The notes under the pieces were generated by a model, which was not told the DNA's origin, did not search any database, and saw nothing but the letters and a program-made list of their open reading frames with translations. Source: a virus. Taken from it: a stretch of DNA of 33,308 bases. The position numbers and the translations under genes are program-made. How positions within the stretch are numbered: position 1 is the first letter of the stretch; the number at the start of each line of letters is the position of its first letter. This document shows positions 8,318-30,407 of this stretch, in pieces. The DNA lies in IMG/VR virus record IMGVR_UViG_3300031539_000167, positions 1 to 33,308 of that record, one strand, 5' to 3'.

Positions 8318-11300
8318 TTATCTATTCTTCTTATTAGATACTATTTTTTGGGATGAAAACCCAAGATTTTCTTGCTTCTTACTCTTAGCCACCGATTCTG
8401 GCTTTGTTAAAGTAATCTGTTTAACAATTTTCTTAGACGCTGGCTTTTTATTTACATCTTCCCTAAGTCTAAGCCTTTGGTCGTCTACTGATTCACCTTT
8501 CTTCCTATTAAACCCACCAATCTGCGATGCAAATTTAGTCAGTTCATCCTTATAAACAATTTTCATATCTGTTTCGTCTTCAAATCCCAACCCACTAAAA
8601 GGCATCATGGCCATTGCGTTGCCAAATCTAGCATGGGCTTCACCAATATCAGTAGGTACGTCACCGTAACTTTGCGAACCAGCCCTAAATGGCGCTAACG
8701 CATCACCACTAAAAGCATGTATATCGCCAAGAGCGAAAAATGCTAATGCGGTAGCAAGAACGCAATCATCACTATTGCCGGGTCCCGGTTCATTTCCAGT
8801 TTTACCATTACCAAAATTAACATAAATAGTAAGTTGCTTATATAATCTAGACGAATGGATTACGAATCCATCCACGCCAAGATTCTCCCGTAGTGCTCCA
8901 TTAAGTTTTGGCTTTGAACCAGTGGAAATGGCCAATCCTACTTGGCCCTTATCTTTTGGTTTCTTTTTAGATCTCCACAAACTGGGGTAACAGATTTCAT
9001 TTTCTAAATCTTTAGCCAATGTTTCACCAATACCAGTCTTATCAACAGCGACCAACGCTGTGTTATACCATCTACCAAGATAATCAATCATATACTTAAG
9101 CTCGGCAACATTAACTCTAATATTCAATTCTGCTACTTGTTCTTGTGTATCAATATCAAATATTTCAATGGCTGAATAATCTTTATTGTCACCACCAGAC
9201 ACGTCAACACCCATCACGTAACTGTGACCCTTTGTTCTATCCGTATGATGGACTGGTTTTTCCCAAATCCACAAATGTTTATCAAAGTCGATATACCGAC
9301 TTTCACCAGTCGTTGGATCTTCATAATCTACCGTACTTAACGTGTACTTCGATTTCTTTACTTCTTCTTGATTTTCACCAATATATCTCAATACTGATGG
9401 ATCAACAACAGTATTGCCAGACCCAAGAAATTCGGCCAGCACTTCCTGCTTAAATAGATGGCCCTCGCCTCTTCTTTGAAGAGCCTTATATTGTTCTTCT
9501 AGCCAAGGCGACCACCAAGGACCATATCTGTCTTTTTCTTCCTCCGATTTTGTTCGTCGTATGTCTTTTCTTGGACTAATTTGGACTATTTCACCAGTAT
9601 CACTTTCATATTCAATAGTCCAGTTCATATCCCACCAATTAATTTGGATAGGATTAAAAACAGACTCTTCGGCAACAGCGTCCATCCACGTTGCCCAATA
9701 CCAGTTACCAACACCTTTACACGTTGAAATGACAATACAAGAACCACCGTGCATGAGAGTGTTGTGTGAAATGAACCCATTAGCTATGTATGTGCTAGTT
9801 TCTGGCACAGAAATATCACCAGTATGAACTGTTACTTGCTTAATATCTTCAATCATATCTATGTAAATATTATTCGATACCAAAAATCCTAGTTTAGTTT
9901 CTTCTAAATCATGCTTATCGCACAATTCAACAGCAGTTTCATATGGGATTGATCCATTTTTAATATAGTACGTTAATCTATTATATTCAAGAGTTCTTGA
10001 TTTATAGTACGACCGTGCCTTTTTAGCAAATTCACGTACTACATTGTGTTTAATCGGTTTTGAATTAGTCGATTTAACATTATTAAGTAGATCATTTTTC
10101 CGATCAGACAAAAACCCAACTTCATTTCTAAATCTCAACAAATTAGCGGAGTCTGCTATAAACAACTCATAATAAATATCTTTACTAAATCTATTATCAG
10201 ACTGTCGCACGTGCGTGTTTGTTATTATGCCAAGCGATAACAATGCTGTTCTAACTTCATCAACCAGTTTACTAGATGAAGTAGAAAACCCGACCTTTTT
10301 GTATTCGCTATTTGCACAATACCCATCTGCTTCAAATAATCCACGTAAGAATGCTGCAATCACTAACCTGCCAGAACGTAATATTAGCTTAGGAATTGAA
10401 GCATTTCTTGAATTATCTTTCGATAATAGCCCAATTTCATTTAAATGATCAACGAATTTGGCATTATTAAGTCTTACATCAATTGTCCCATTGCCTTTTT
10501 GCTCATAAGCATTTACATCTATACTTTTTAATTTCTCTATTAATTTTATTCTAAGATCAACATCTTTTGGGTCGGTGCTTAAAATGAGCCTCTTTGGTCT
10601 TGACTTATACGCAGTACCATCACCTATATAATATCCAATTATCTCAGCCAAATTTTCATCTATAACATCATTACTACCACTACACGTATCCATTTTCATA
10701 CATATAGCATCACCAAATTTCATATCCTTCATATATCGCCACGTATATTCTCCATTTTGATCAATAACTCTTAATCTGTGATCTGATGTTGCCGATATTT
10801 CATATCCCAAGTAAGTTCGAATATGTATTGCTTCTGATAATCCATTATACCACGAAGCATTTGAATTTTCAAAGCCAATATCAGTACAAACATTCAAATC
10901 ACCCTTGGTGAAATTTTTAATTCTTGATTTATCAACAATATCACCAATATCTATTAAGCCATCGCTAGTTGACAATAACGTTCCAAAAGAGACACATTGT
11001 TGCCCTCCAGCCCACATGTCTTCCATATGCTGCATGAATGCAGCTTCATCGATAATCACCAATTTAGCCGATGATGATCTTAAGGTTTCTGGGTTGGAAG
11101 TATGAGACTTAATTGTGCTTTTAGATCTAAAAGAAATTTCGTGTGCATTATATGTGCAAGTTTCATCATGAAATATGTCTTTCAAAAACTGCGGTAGTCT
11201 ATCAAAAACACCCTTAACGTTCTTTTTCAAGAACTCTTTCGCATCTTCATCTGTCTTTGATACAACCAATATTTTCTTATTCGTGCTGAACATAGCGGTC

Positions 11301-11524
11301 CATAACGCATATGCCCCAGTCAATGTTGATATACCACATTGACGACACTTTTTAAATATGTTAAAGCGATTTTCTCTGTAGTCTCTTAAAACATCTAGTT
11401 GGTATGAAAATAATTTAAATGGCATAACTCCTGCAGTTGGGTGCTCAACAGTGCAGAAGTTTTCAATAAAGAACTCGGGAGATTCTTTACACTTCTCCAG
11501 TATTTTGACTACTGTTGGATTCAT
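8318..11524 (-). CDS. 17: Large terminase (packaging ATPase/nuclease), T4 gp17-like, interrupted by an intein
   Basis: Motor that pumps DNA into the prohead through the portal and cuts concatemers. The 1068-aa precursor has the ATPase domain split by an intein (residues 177-588); the spliced enzyme would be 656 aa, near T4 gp17 (610 aa). ATPase: a deviant Walker A, KCRQCGIST (K59-T67), has Ile where the usual Lys sits, but Lys five residues before the Gly as in lambda gpA; Walker B is LVIIDE (155-160). After the intein, SCIVISTCKG is the coupling motif. The RNase H-like nuclease has D774 (GVDVSGG), D828 (VAVDKTG) and D919/D920 (NSDDCVLATAL) as metal ligands. The C-terminus is Lys-rich. Start is ATG at 11524, five bases after the preceding stop. 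Confidence 0.95.
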   Translation of the reverse strand: MNPTVVKILEKCKESPEFFIENFCTVEHPTAGVMPFKLFSYQLDVLRDYRENRFNIFKKCRQCGISTLTGAYALWTAMFSTNKKILVVSKTDEDAKEFLKKNVKGVFDRLPQFLKDIFHDETCTYNAHEISFRSKSTIKSHTSNPETLRSSSAKLVIIDEAAFMQHMEDMWAGGQQCVSFGTLLSTSDGLIDIGDIVDKSRIKNFTKGDLNVCTDIGFENSNASWYNGLSEAIHIRTYLGYEISATSDHRLRVIDQNGEYTWRYMKDMKFGDAICMKMDTCSGSNDVIDENLAEIIGYYIGDGTAYKSRPKRLILSTDPKDVDLRIKLIEKLKSIDVNAYEQKGNGTIDVRLNNAKFVDHLNEIGLLSKDNSRNASIPKLILRSGRLVIAAFLRGLFEADGYCANSEYKKVGFSTSSSKLVDEVRTALLSLGIITNTHVRQSDNRFSKDIYYELFIADSANLLRFRNEVGFLSDRKNDLLNNVKSTNSKPIKHNVVREFAKKARSYYKSRTLEYNRLTYYIKNGSIPYETAVELCDKHDLEETKLGFLVSNNIYIDMIEDIKQVTVHTGDISVPETSTYIANGFISHNTLMHGGSCIVISTCKGVGNWYWATWMDAVAEESVFNPIQINWWDMNWTIEYESDTGEIVQISPRKDIRRTKSEEEKDRYGPWWSPWLEEQYKALQRRGEGHLFKQEVLAEFLGSGNTVVDPSVLRYIGENQEEVKKSKYTLSTVDYEDPTTGESRYIDFDKHLWIWEKPVHHTDRTKGHSYVMGVDVSGGDNKDYSAIEIFDIDTQEQVAELNIRVNVAELKYMIDYLGRWYNTALVAVDKTGIGETLAKDLENEICYPSLWRSKKKPKDKGQVGLAISTGSKPKLNGALRENLGVDGFVIHSSRLYKQLTIYVNFGNGKTGNEPGPGNSDDCVLATALAFFALGDIHAFSGDALAPFRAGSQSYGDVPTDIGEAHARFGNAMAMMPFSGLGFEDETDMKIVYKDELTKFASQIGGFNRKKGESVDDQRLRLREDVNKKPASKKIVKQITLTKPESVAKSKKQENLGFSSQKIVSNKKNR
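9761..10996 (-). mobile_element. Full-length class 1 intein with LAGLIDADG homing endonuclease
   Basis: In-frame 412-residue insertion in the large terminase. It begins with Cys (C177, block A), has a block B-like TSDHRL at about 246-251 and ends with ...STYIANGFISHN (N588), with penultimate His and Thr as the first downstream extein residue. Two LAGLIDADG helices are present: EIIGYYIGDGTA (about 294-305) and AFLRGLFEADGYC (391-403), both keeping the acidic residue, so it may still be an active homing endonuclease. Removing it joins ...WAGGQQ to TLMHGGSC, restoring a continuous gp17-like ATPase just after Walker B. All splice residues look intact, so splicing is expected; endonuclease activity is inferred. 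Confidence 0.95.
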
Positions 11525-13911: not shown

Positions 13912-13954
13912 AAATATTTACTACTGGTGACATACACTTTTGTAGTAATTATTT
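13912..13954 (-). promoter_or_regulatory. Imperfect hairpin in the leader of the sigma gene
   Basis: Arms 13912-13924 and 13942-13954 pair over 13 bp with one mismatch, around a 17-base loop. The hairpin runs from the stop of the 134-aa gene to four bases before the sigma ATG and is followed by a short T-run. No clear Shine-Dalgarno is visible for the sigma gene, so the structure could act as a weak terminator or limit translation; neither is shown. Confidence 0.35.
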
Positions 13955-14353
13955 TTGATTAATAATTAACTCCGTGGCATACTTAATATAGTCGCTAATT
14001 ACGTTAATGTAATTAGGATTGGCCATAGACACAATTTTCGGCTTGACATCAACCTCTAAATTGGTATGTACAGAAATCTTTATCTCTAAATTTCCAACCA
14101 GCCTTTGTGGTGGAGATTGGAAGGGCACGAAAAAACTGGTTTTTGGCTGATCGTCGTGCAATCCTTCTATATCAAATACTAAATTTTCATTTTCAATATA
14201 CCTAATCAAGAAATAATATTCAGTCACCCGCATAGAACATATACCGGGCGAATGATCTATTCCTAATTTATCGATTATTAGATCAGCAAATCTGGCTGAA
14301 AAATGAAACTTATTTGCAAGGGCGTGATATTTATTATATAGGTGATTGTGCAT
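13949..14353 (-). CDS. Unknown 134-aa protein coupled to the UvsW-like helicase
   Basis: Not recognised. The product begins MHNHLYNKYHALANKFHF, with a helical first third (FSARFADLIIDKLGI) and a beta-rich middle (EYYFLIRYIENENLVFDIEG and NLEIKISVHTNLEVDVK), ending in a helix. There is no signal peptide or membrane segment. Its ATG overlaps the helicase stop (TAATG at 14351-14355), implying translational coupling and perhaps a joint role, but no function can be assigned. Confidence 0.75.
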   Translation of the reverse strand: MHNHLYNKYHALANKFHFSARFADLIIDKLGIDHSPGICSMRVTEYYFLIRYIENENLVFDIEGLHDDQPKTSFFVPFQSPPQRLVGNLEIKISVHTNLEVDVKPKIVSMANPNYINVISDYIKYATELIINQK

Positions 14354-27178: not shown

Positions 27179-28282
27179 TTAATTTCCCTCTAAAATTTTC
27201 AAGAATTTCATCCTATCTCTAGGCTGCTTTTTAATTGTCAACCGAAGCTTAATTGCCACTTCTTTCGTTAATTTTTTAGCATGTTTATTGATATACAATT
27301 TCACACAATCATCTCTCTTTGCATATTCCTGCGGCACAAGATTGGGGAAGAACATGCAAAGAATATGGAAATCATTCCAATCCTTAATATTATTACCGTT
27401 CTGATCTTTTATGAGTGGCGGTTGGCAATAATATAATACATCATCGAAAATACCATGCATCAACATTCTGTTTTGGTAAATAGAAGTGGTTCCAGCTTCA
27501 TCGTTATCTGGGCACAATATCACCCTGATTGGCGAAAAAACTTTTAGTCTCATTATTTGTTTTAAATCTAGAGTGGCACCACCAGAGGCTAACCCACCAT
27601 CACCAATAGAAATAGCTCCAAATAACGATTCTGTTACGAACAAATCTGATTTATGATCTGCTCTATCCCAACCATATAAGAAACTAGTTTTTAAAACACC
27701 AGTACTGGCATCTGGGAACTCAAATCTTTTTGAATCAGTATCCCTAGTTTGCCAATATGCAACTTCGCCATATTCAATATATGGAAATACTACTTTAGAA
27801 ACGGCATACATCACGCCCCATTTTTTAATCTTTTCTAAAGTTACACATCTTCCAATTAGATAATTAAGAACCATTGTTTCCATCATAGTTCTTTTTTCGC
27901 CATCCGGTTTAAATTCCTTAGAACCCGGTGGTAATTCCAAATCACCAACTATTATTTCCTCATCCCCATCTTCCTCAGGTGTCTCTAAATATGAGGTGAT
28001 ATTAGCGTGCTTCGCAGACTTTATGTTCCTAACTGCGGCTCGATAATCGCATTGAAGATAAGCCATAACGAAATTCACGAACGGACCATCGTGATTTTGG
28101 TGGTGTGGCCTCCAATCATGAACTAAACCCTTTTTAAGGTTCACATTCATGTGAAATTTTGTATCTGGAGTGCCTGTTTCTAATTCTTGGAATGGATTAC
28201 AAATCTTAAGTTCTTTAATGCCATCTCTAACATCAAAGTTTGCCCGTACCCAATTTTCTATTTCCTTCGGGCTTATATGCAT
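27179..28282 (-). CDS. Primase-like protein with TOPRIM domain but no zinc finger
   Basis: 367 aa from ATG 28282, preceded by GGAAG five bases upstream; a TTG at 28294 gives four more residues but is weaker. The N-terminal 90 residues follow the outline of a CHC2-type primase module (FHMNVNLKKGLVHDWRPH, then GPFVNFVMAYLQCDYRAAVR) yet lack the paired Cys/His ligands. Residues about 200-310 form a TOPRIM fold: LFVTES with E218, GDGGLASGGATL, then VILCPDNDEAG with D259 and D261, and KDWND. Primases of this kind make RNA primers for lagging-strand synthesis; loss of the zinc site makes template recognition uncertain. It overlaps the Fic-like gene by 50 bases and lies inside the tail cluster, an unusual place. 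Confidence 0.7.
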   Translation of the reverse strand: MHISPKEIENWVRANFDVRDGIKELKICNPFQELETGTPDTKFHMNVNLKKGLVHDWRPHHQNHDGPFVNFVMAYLQCDYRAAVRNIKSAKHANITSYLETPEEDGDEEIIVGDLELPPGSKEFKPDGEKRTMMETMVLNYLIGRCVTLEKIKKWGVMYAVSKVVFPYIEYGEVAYWQTRDTDSKRFEFPDASTGVLKTSFLYGWDRADHKSDLFVTESLFGAISIGDGGLASGGATLDLKQIMRLKVFSPIRVILCPDNDEAGTTSIYQNRMLMHGIFDDVLYYCQPPLIKDQNGNNIKDWNDFHILCMFFPNLVPQEYAKRDDCVKLYINKHAKKLTKEVAIKLRLTIKKQPRDRMKFLKILEGN

Positions 28283-28877
28283 ATCTACTTCCAAAAACAG
28301 AATGAAAACTCTCTATCGCGTTGTAATAAGTAACAGTATCAACATCAAAATTTGATATGTCCATAAAATGTCGTAAACGAAGCATGTTGAACATCAGCCT
28401 TCCAACACGACCATTATCCGATCTAAAAGGCTGCATACATTCAAATACATTATGGACGTACCAGAAATAGTTGTTGGCGGCTACATCTCCGCTTTGAATA
28501 ATGCCATCACATAACGTTAATAAGTAATCAAACTTTTTAACGACATCGCCTAAACCAACTGGATCTGGGCATTCATACGCTCTAACTATTTTAGATTCTG
28601 TTCTTATTGCCCCTCTATCTTCTCTATTCCTATCAAGCTTATAATGTATTGCTCTAACATCATTAAATGTGATACCATCAGTAATTCTTACGCGTTCGAC
28701 CATCCAAGCATACGCAGCATACTGACCAGCAACAGATGGATATTTGGCTTCAAATGCTGGTGTTATTCTTTTGGTGGTAGTCAATAACTTGTAAATAACA
28801 TCAACAGTTTCAGATGGTTTACCATCAATAACATTGTTGTTGTGTATGAATTCAGATAGTAGTCTGAGGCTGTCCAT
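28233..28877 (-). CDS. Fic/DOC-fold protein with substituted active-site motif
   Basis: 214 aa. Fic enzymes transfer AMP or other phosphate-containing groups to proteins using HPFx(D/E)GN(G/K)R. Here residues 149-157 read QPFRSDNGR inside HNVFECMQPFRSDNGRVGRL, so the catalytic His is Gln, the metal-binding acidic residue is Ser and the first Gly is Asp; Asn, Gly and Arg remain. Upstream, HYKLDRNREDRGAIRT corresponds to the flap region. The N-terminal helix LLSEFIHNN aligns with the class II inhibitory motif (S/T)xxxE(G/N), again with the Glu replaced (by His12). Start ATG 28877 overlaps the preceding small gene (TAATG). Likely a non-catalytic or re-purposed Fic fold; target unknown. Confidence 0.75.
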   Translation of the reverse strand: MDSLRLLSEFIHNNNVIDGKPSETVDVIYKLLTTTKRITPAFEAKYPSVAGQYAAYAWMVERVRITDGITFNDVRAIHYKLDRNREDRGAIRTESKIVRAYECPDPVGLGDVVKKFDYLLTLCDGIIQSGDVAANNYFWYVHNVFECMQPFRSDNGRVGRLMFNMLRLRHFMDISNFDVDTVTYYNAIESFHSVFGSRYAYKPEGNRKLGTGKL

Positions 28878-29092
28878 TAAATTTGCCGACCATATCCCCT
28901 CGTATCGGAAGCTGAGGAGGTATCTGGCATCGTTCCCGATTTGTTTAACTGCGATAATTGTGTACTGACTTGTGTTTCATTTTCCAAGTCGTCTGTTTCG
29001 TCTTCTCTCCCATCAAAGTAATCTTCTAATCTCCTGCCCTTTTCGGAAGTTTTTCTTTTTATAGCGTCTCTATGTAGCTCTTCTAGTCTCAT
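28877..29092 (-). CDS. Small acidic protein coupled to the Fic-like gene
   Basis: 71 aa, likely largely disordered: a basic helical start (MRLEELHRDAIKRKTSEKGR), an acidic middle (DGREDETDDLENETQ) and a Ser/Thr/Gly tail. T33-D-D-L-E37-N38 fits the Fic-inhibition consensus (S/T)xxxE(G/N) exactly, as in small VbhA-type antitoxins encoded just upstream of class I Fic proteins; a chance match in an acidic stretch is possible. Both ends are coupled: ATGA with the preceding gene and TAATG with the Fic-like gene. Confidence 0.6.
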   Translation of the reverse strand: MRLEELHRDAIKRKTSEKGRRLEDYFDGREDETDDLENETQVSTQLSQLNKSGTMPDTSSASDTRGYGRQI

Positions 29093-29625
29093 TTTACCGC
29101 CGATGACATATTCGCAAACGCCGTGGCAATGAATCTTTTCACTTCTTCTGCCGAAACTAAGTCCATCTGCTTGACGGCCTCTGGGAGATATTTCTCAAAT
29201 AATCCCGGTACGTCAGATATTTTAACGTATTCTTGCTCAAATTCCTTCGGTTCCTGATGATCAGACAATTCAGCAGTGGTTTCTTCTAAAACCACCTTAC
29301 TGATTGGGGCCAAAATTCTAATGGCCCACGATGATCCAACTTTATTCTCAATCATTACCACATATTGTTTTTTCTTGCATTCAATCATAACTCTTTCAAT
29401 ATCATACGTAAGCATTCTACCATTATCAAAATGTAAAAATGGGATTGATTCAGACAATTCGTGGTGAAGGTTCTCTGACACCAACGGTACGTACATCACT
29501 TCATCTAACGCATCGAGCATGTATCCAATAACATTCGCGGCACCGGAATCAACAATCCATTCATTCACCGGTACGCCATCTTCTTTTAATGTTATCGACA
29601 ATCCGTTTTTGTCATATGGTATCAT
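29089..29625 (-). CDS. Unknown acidic 178-aa protein
   Basis: Not recognised. A beta-rich N-terminal half (NGLSITLKEDGVPVNEWIVD, FDNGRMLTYDIERVMIECKK, YVVMIENKVGSSWAIRIL) and an acidic helical C-terminal half (DVPGLFEKYLPEAVKQMDL, SAEEVKRFIATAFANM). No membrane segment. It lies two bases after the 259-aa gene and overlaps the next gene by ATGA, so it belongs to the tail transcript. A tail-assembly role is possible from location only. Confidence 0.7.
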   Translation of the reverse strand: MIPYDKNGLSITLKEDGVPVNEWIVDSGAANVIGYMLDALDEVMYVPLVSENLHHELSESIPFLHFDNGRMLTYDIERVMIECKKKQYVVMIENKVGSSWAIRILAPISKVVLEETTAELSDHQEPKEFEQEYVKISDVPGLFEKYLPEAVKQMDLVSAEEVKRFIATAFANMSSAVK

Positions 29626-29627
29626 TT

Positions 29628-30407
29628 TTAGGCCACGCTAAAATGCATCCAAGGGCTTGTTTGTCTAGTGCCATCCGGTAAGTTCATAGTGACACGGGAG
29701 CGGTAATTGCCAACCAAAAATGCAGTTGTGTCTAACTTATGCTTGAAGACGAATGGATTGGTTCTGTAACTACCTTGTCTTAGACCACAAATCATTGGCA
29801 CATTATCGACCAACAACTCACAATTATTTGTTTCTACGGTAATAGTAGCATTCGACATCAATATCGCCGGGATTGACTTATTCTGATCAAAGTCGTACAA
29901 CGGCAATGGCATAATACCAACTTCAAACCATTTTAGTTCCGGCTTATAAAATTTAGTGGTTAGTTGCTCAAACTTAAATTGTAATGACGTAAGATTGTCT
30001 GTGCAGAACCACCCACCATCTCTCAGCCAAAACTGGTTACAACATTTAAACCATAATGTTTCATCATTAATATCGCCACCGGTCCCAAGTGGTTCCGGTA
30101 GAAAATACCAGACATCAAAATAAATATCCATATCCAATTCTTGACCAGCCAGCCAAGGTAGGATATATTCGCCACTTTCAATCACGCCATCGCTATCAGC
30201 GTCCTGTTGTTGAAGTGGGGAAGGATATGATGGATCGTCGGGATCAACGATAGCTATCTCTTCTACTTTATTTTCTTCTTTTATCGACCCTTTATATATA
30301 TCAATTCTTCTTATAGCGTATGGGGCCGCTTGCACACCATCCTTGTAAAAGGATGTGTTCAAATAGACTGTAGATCCGATTCTTCCGGTCAATCTTGGAC
30401 TGGACAT
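29628..30407 (-). CDS. Putative tail structural protein with an EF-hand calcium loop
   Basis: 259 aa, beta-rich, directly after the tape measure gene. Residues 69-80, DADSDGVIESGE, are a perfect 12-residue EF-hand loop (D1, D3, D5, G6, I8, E12), so calcium binding is likely. Other features are aromatic-rich strands (MDIYFDVWYFLPEPLG, WFKCCNQFWLRDGGWFC) and a C-terminal Ig-like strand pattern (FLVGNYRSRVTMNLPDGTRQ). Four cysteines, two adjacent. AGGAG is nine bases before ATG 30407. By position a tail or baseplate component; the family is not recognised. Confidence 0.65.
   Translation of the reverse strand: MSSPRLTGRIGSTVYLNTSFYKDGVQAAPYAIRRIDIYKGSIKEENKVEEIAIVDPDDPSYPSPLQQQDADSDGVIESGEYILPWLAGQELDMDIYFDVWYFLPEPLGTGGDINDETLWFKCCNQFWLRDGGWFCTDNLTSLQFKFEQLTTKFYKPELKWFEVGIMPLPLYDFDQNKSIPAILMSNATITVETNNCELLVDNVPMICGLRQGSYRTNPFVFKHKLDTTAFLVGNYRSRVTMNLPDGTRQTSPWMHFSVA

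What the first reader, a model, noticed from the sequence alone, without database searches (positions are those of the whole stretch)
28233..29092. Degenerate Fic-fold protein coupled to a small protein with an intact Fic-inhibition motif
Seen: the Fic-like protein has QPFRSDNGR where enzymes have HPFx(D/E)GN(G/K)R (His to Gln, acid to Ser, Gly to Asp), and its N-terminal helix has SEFIHN where class II proteins have (S/T)xxxE(G/N), with Glu replaced by His. The 71-aa gene just upstream, joined by TAATG, has TDDLEN, an exact match to the inhibition consensus. Known: in VbhA/VbhT modules a small upstream antitoxin supplies that motif. Inferred: a phage two-gene Fic-derived system in which catalysis or inhibition has been rewired, perhaps to antagonise a host Fic system or to use a different chemistry.
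Basis: partly seen in the sequence, partly recalled or inferred. Interest (0 to 1): 0.75.

Follow-up and report, generated by a model that had tools for sequence, protein, structure and literature searches.

The report
Phage Fic pseudoenzyme, no antitoxin partner
A tailed phage carries, among its tail genes, a Fic-fold protein that has kept the Fic shape and binding groove but lost the residues Fic enzymes use to attach AMP to proteins; the small gene beside it looks like an ordinary tail-operon gene rather than an antitoxin, so this is a modest variant of a known kind.

Summary
The Fic-like gene (28233-28877, minus strand, 214 aa) is real. It passes Pfam Fic, and AlphaFold2 gives a confident Fic fold (pLDDT 89) closest to FICD. 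The core motif is QPFRSDNGRVGR: catalytic His, metal-binding acid and first Gly are changed; N, G, R1 and R2 are kept. Two reader claims fail. (1) The class II inhibition motif is not SEFIHN but NNVIDG (residues 14-19); Asp replaces Glu, as in an intact phage Fic subfamily (SNxIDP). (2) The 71-aa neighbour is unlikely to be a VbhA-type antitoxin: TDDLEN arises by chance in 15% of shuffles and is absent from the one clear homologue, and probable homologues occupy the same place in relatives without any Fic. One syntenic relative (G002) carries small gene + Fic at 33-42% identity, with HPFEYDNGRVGR: His present, acid lost, Gly-to-Asp shared. So Gln149 is not family-wide; acid loss and Gly-to-Asp are. 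The Fic diverges no faster than neighbouring core tail genes, and its groove is strongly conserved, so it is not simple decay. Best reading: an AMPylation-dead Fic pseudoenzyme, made late, acting by binding. Degenerate Fics are known (EcFicT, C. fetus Fic2, AvrB). Moderate interest.

The parts
28233..28877 (-). Fic-fold pseudoenzyme, 214 aa; core motif QPFRSDNGRVGR (residues 149-160)
   Evidence: Pfam PF02661; AlphaFold2 pLDDT 89.4; Foldseek to FICD E 1e-6; 41-42% identical syntenic homologue in G002
28398..28433 (-). Codons for the core motif QPFRSDNGRVGR (residues 149-160)
   Evidence: codons read; alignments
28821..28838 (-). Codons for NNVIDG (residues 14-19), the position equivalent to the class II inhibition motif (S/T)xxxE(G/N)
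   Evidence: alignments to FICD TVAIEG and to phage SNAIEG / SNLIDP
28877..29092 (-). Small 71-aa gene; conserved ends MkLddLH... and RGxGRQ; not recognisable as an antitoxin
   Evidence: homologue of 64 aa in G002 (E 6e-12 for the single comparison); no Pfam or PADLOC family and nothing significant in NCBIfam, PHROGs or the PDB; AlphaFold2 pLDDT 63
29628..30407 (-). 259-aa conserved tail-operon gene used to find relatives
   Evidence: 20 viral loci encode it; only this phage and G002 have a Fic after it
27179..28294 (-). Primase-like gene that follows the Fic and overlaps its 3' end
   Evidence: PHROG 47, E 4e-29; same order and overlap in G002

Best explanation
The 214-aa protein is an AMPylation-dead Fic pseudoenzyme. 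It most likely descends from an N-terminally auto-inhibited (class II-like) Fic related to a phage subfamily in which the inhibitory Glu is already Asp. In the ancestor of this phage and G002 the metal-binding acid was lost and the first Gly became Asp; later, in this phage only, the now less needed catalytic His became Gln. The protein kept the target-docking flap, both motif arginines and the helix that closes the groove. It is encoded inside the tail operon, so it is probably made late and in quantity, and most likely works by binding a peptide, nucleotide or AMPylated target rather than by transferring AMP. Shown: predicted fold, residue changes, synteny, groove conservation. Inferred: order of losses, late expression, binding role. 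Unknown: the ligand.
For: Fold. Acid and Gly changed in both phages, His only here. Residue roles: His is the general base, D/E binds Mg, R2 pairs with the inhibitory Glu (PMC3667792, PMC5033356). No simple decay: intact ORF in both phages at 42% identity, within the range of most neighbouring core tail genes (34-55%). Identity in inhibition helix, flap and Fic loop is 67% against 26% elsewhere, ratio 2.6; 24 pairs of motif-intact phage Fics of similar divergence give 1.5-2.2. Asp in place of the inhibitory Glu also in L031, L033, L035, L037, L042, L049, L058.
Against: No ligand or activity was tested. The G002 homologue keeps His, so that branch may still be an enzyme. Losing the acid does not prove inactivity: the D/E is poorly conserved in one subgroup of presumed active FicT proteins (PMC5033356), and C. 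fetus Fic2 with a degenerate motif is toxic through its His (PMC5651007). Only two lineages were found. The conserved regions were delimited after seeing the alignment. The deeper placement in the tree is weakly supported (51/79).
Confidence: 0.5

Rival explanations
1. An active Fido enzyme with altered, perhaps metal-independent chemistry: the groove is conserved because it still catalyses transfer from another activated donor, as AvrB (a rhamnosyltransferase that needs no divalent cation) does on the Fido fold.
For: Groove conserved more than in motif-intact Fics; Asp154, new in the motif, is shared with G002; AvrB precedent (PMC10866546).
Against: His/Gln and Ser/Tyr vary at the two key positions between the only two members, which is odd for a shared new active site. 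L070 has Asp at the Gly position beside an intact His and acid, so Asp154 need not mean new chemistry.
Confidence: 0.2
2. A VbhA/VbhT-like pair: the 71-aa protein supplies the inhibition helix in trans to the Fic-like protein.
For: TAATG coupling; TDDLEN match; the small gene precedes the Fic in G002 too; small overlapping upstream antitoxins with poor motifs exist in C. fetus (PMC5651007).
Against: Motif absent in G002 and expected by chance in 15%; Fic has its own motif position filled; probable small homologues without Fic; TDDLEN modelled in a loop/helix start at low confidence, not at a helix end as in EcFicA.
Confidence: 0.07
3. A neutral remnant of a Fic gene on the way to loss.
For: Stepwise loss of motif residues; only 2 of the phages sharing the 259-aa gene carry it.
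Against: Intact ORF in two phages at 42% identity, with divergence like core tail genes and concentrated groove conservation.
Confidence: 0.12
4. A still functional AMP transferase or deAMPylase using non-standard residues.
For: N, G, R1 and R2 of the motif and the flap are kept.
Against: General base and Mg ligand both absent in the window protein (roles in PMC3667792, PMC5033356).
Confidence: 0.06

Closest known systems
EcFicT/EcFicA (E. coli Fic-YhfG; PMC5033356)
   Same: Fic fold with a degenerate motif, thought not to bind ATP; small gene directly upstream
   Different: In EcFicT, R1 is a leucine; its partner has a canonical helix-borne inhibition motif and binds it in a crystal structure. 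Here R1 is kept, His is lost and the neighbour's motif is not conserved
Phage Fic subfamily with SNxIDP and HPFxDGNGRTGR (L031, L033, L035, L037, L042, L049, L058; PHROGs 5978/11900)
   Same: Short single-domain Fic, Asp in place of the inhibitory Glu, similar flap (CPxP); L031 is 28% identical
   Different: Catalytic motif intact; no small upstream gene like the window's was seen in the flanks read
Class II Fic proteins such as FICD
   Same: N-terminal inhibition-motif position, flap, R1/R2; best sequence and fold match in the PDB
   Different: Glu is Asp; His, acid and first Gly replaced
Campylobacter fetus Fic2 (PMC5651007)
   Same: Degenerate core motif in a Fic protein
   Different: Fic2 keeps His, loses a Gly and an Arg, and is toxic in E. 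coli
AvrB (PMC10866546)
   Same: Fido fold with strongly divergent active site
   Different: AvrB is a proven rhamnosyltransferase; no activity is known here

Membership tests
Fic/Fido fold | Fic sequence family and fold | tested here: met
   PF02661 24.7 bits in genome scan, 23.7 as protein; pLDDT 89.4, Foldseek prob 1.0 to FICD
Active Fic AMP transferase | HxFx(D/E)GNGRxxR signature | tested here: not met
   QPFRSDNGRVGR: His, acid and first Gly replaced
Class II Fic | (S/T)xxxE(G/N) before the Fic domain | tested here: not met
   Aligned segment is NNVIDG: Ser/Thr to Asn, Glu to Asp, Gly kept
Class I FicTA (VbhA/VbhT) | Small upstream gene with a conserved inhibition motif | tested here: not met
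   Upstream gene present, motif not conserved in G002; no antitoxin family match
Class I FicTA (VbhA/VbhT) | Physical complex of the two proteins | not testable with these tools
Doc | HxFx(D/N)(A/G)NKR motif | tested here: not met
   QPFRSDNGR; consensus from PMC4177925
Fic pseudoenzyme | No transferase activity | not testable with these tools
   Inferred from residues only

The most novel reading that the evidence does not exclude
A phage-specific Fic-derived protein that has exchanged AMP transfer for another job in the tail-gene programme: either a binder or reader of Fic targets or AMPylated proteins, or a Fido enzyme with new chemistry built on Asp154 and the two arginines.
Probability: 0.25. 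Interest if true: 0.65.

Novelty: new variant of a known kind. Interest (0 to 1): 0.35.

Why it matters
If the reading holds, it shows a Fic scaffold kept by phages after losing its chemistry, with the substrate groove still under selection. That gives a natural test of what a Fic groove does without catalysis and could reveal phage interference with host Fic targets. As a gene pair it adds little, because degenerate Fics and upstream partners are already described.

Tried and rejected
QPFxxxNGRxGR scan of 2.9 million viral contigs: besides this phage, none of the other matches reads as a Fic in its frame. Single-protein searches of viral and genome contigs gave only this phage or nothing; the two-member profile found only this phage and G002 in viral contigs and nothing in genome contigs. 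LR756511 and XacN1, related in baseplate genes, have no Fic match. The best hits of the small protein in phages, E 2-10, were discarded as chance. VbhA-type filing of the small protein rejected (see rivals). SEFIHN as inhibition motif rejected. A search for papers holding 'Fic domain', 'phage-encoded' and 'AMPylation' found none in the held library.

Full report
What is there. The window is a virus record of 33,308 bases with its main genes on the minus strand, from a myovirus with T4-like parts: baseplate genes, Portal_T4, terminase and ribonucleotide reductase; the 916-aa protein upstream is read as the tape measure from its length, place and make-up. The Fic family match is modest by sequence but the predicted fold is confident, and its best PDB matches are FICD structures; a two-member profile also finds FICD at 2e-7.

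Register of the inhibition motif. FICD, other Fics and phage Fics align TVAIEG, SNAIEG or SNLIDP with NNVIDG, residues 14-19. So the acid is kept as Asp18, and Asp here is normal in a phage Fic subfamily with an intact catalytic motif. One of these, L031, is 28% identical and reads WWVHNCFECIHPFVDGNGR against FWYVHNVFECMQPFRSDNGR.

A syntenic relative. A scan for PFxxDNGRxGR found G002 (contig IMGVR_UViG_3300010938_000015). It has the same order: tape measure, 263-aa homologue of the 259-aa gene, 64-aa small gene, Fic-like gene of 205 aa, primase, hub and baseplate. The window's 178-aa gene is missing there. The G002 motif is HPFEYDNGRVGR. Thus His-to-Gln (CAC against CAG) is private to the window phage among the two known members, while loss of the acid and Gly-to-Asp are shared.

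The small gene. The two small proteins are homologous (E 6e-12 for the single comparison) with conserved ends, but TDDLEN aligns with GDLST-like residues and no [ST]xxxE[GN] is present. Twenty viral loci carry the 259-aa gene; only this phage and G002 have a Fic after it, and the other records hold no Fic match as far as they go (many are short fragments). L078 and L091-L093 have a 59- or 68-aa gene starting MKLSELH or MKLSDLY in the same place, without a Fic. That homology rests on a short N-terminus and position; the profile E-values are only 0.16-0.91, so it is probable, not proven.

Constraint. The Fic is 42% identical between the two phages, like the 451-aa gene (44%), gp25-like (43%) and primase (43-50%) genes. 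Inhibition helix, flap and Fic loop are 67% identical, the rest 26%. The ratio exceeds that of 24 motif-intact phage Fic pairs, with the caveats that the regions were set after seeing the alignment and that this is one pair.

Mechanism. The roles of the residues come from PMC3667792 and PMC5033356: without base and metal ligand, AMP transfer is unlikely. R1, R2, Asn and flap remain, so a ligand-binding role is the best guess (0.5), then altered chemistry (0.2), neutral remnant (0.12), antitoxin pair (0.07), residual AMP transfer or removal (0.06). [quoted passage not shown]

Noticed in passing
window 8318-11524 (-); L097:1063-2010: The terminase ORF holds an intein (Intein_splicing and LAGLIDADG matches); residues 241-532 match a stretch lying between the two halves of the ribonucleotide reductase gene in G002, so related inserted elements may sit in different genes.
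   Followed up: partly
L031, L033, L035, L037, L042, L049, L058: A phage Fic subfamily, several members on contigs over 100 kb, has SNxIDP in place of SxxxEG with an intact catalytic motif; Asp may be a native inhibitory acid.
   Followed up: partly
window 13949-14353 (-): This 134-aa gene holds 6 of the 12 differences between the two contigs of this phage in 22.4 kb.
   Followed up: no
window 29089-29625 (-): A 178-aa gene present here is absent from the same place in G002; L078, L079 and L084-L086 have a different 101-137 aa gene there.
   Followed up: no
window 28233-28294; L097:13045-13109: The primase-like ORF overlaps the 3' end of the Fic gene by about 60 bases in both phages.
   Followed up: no
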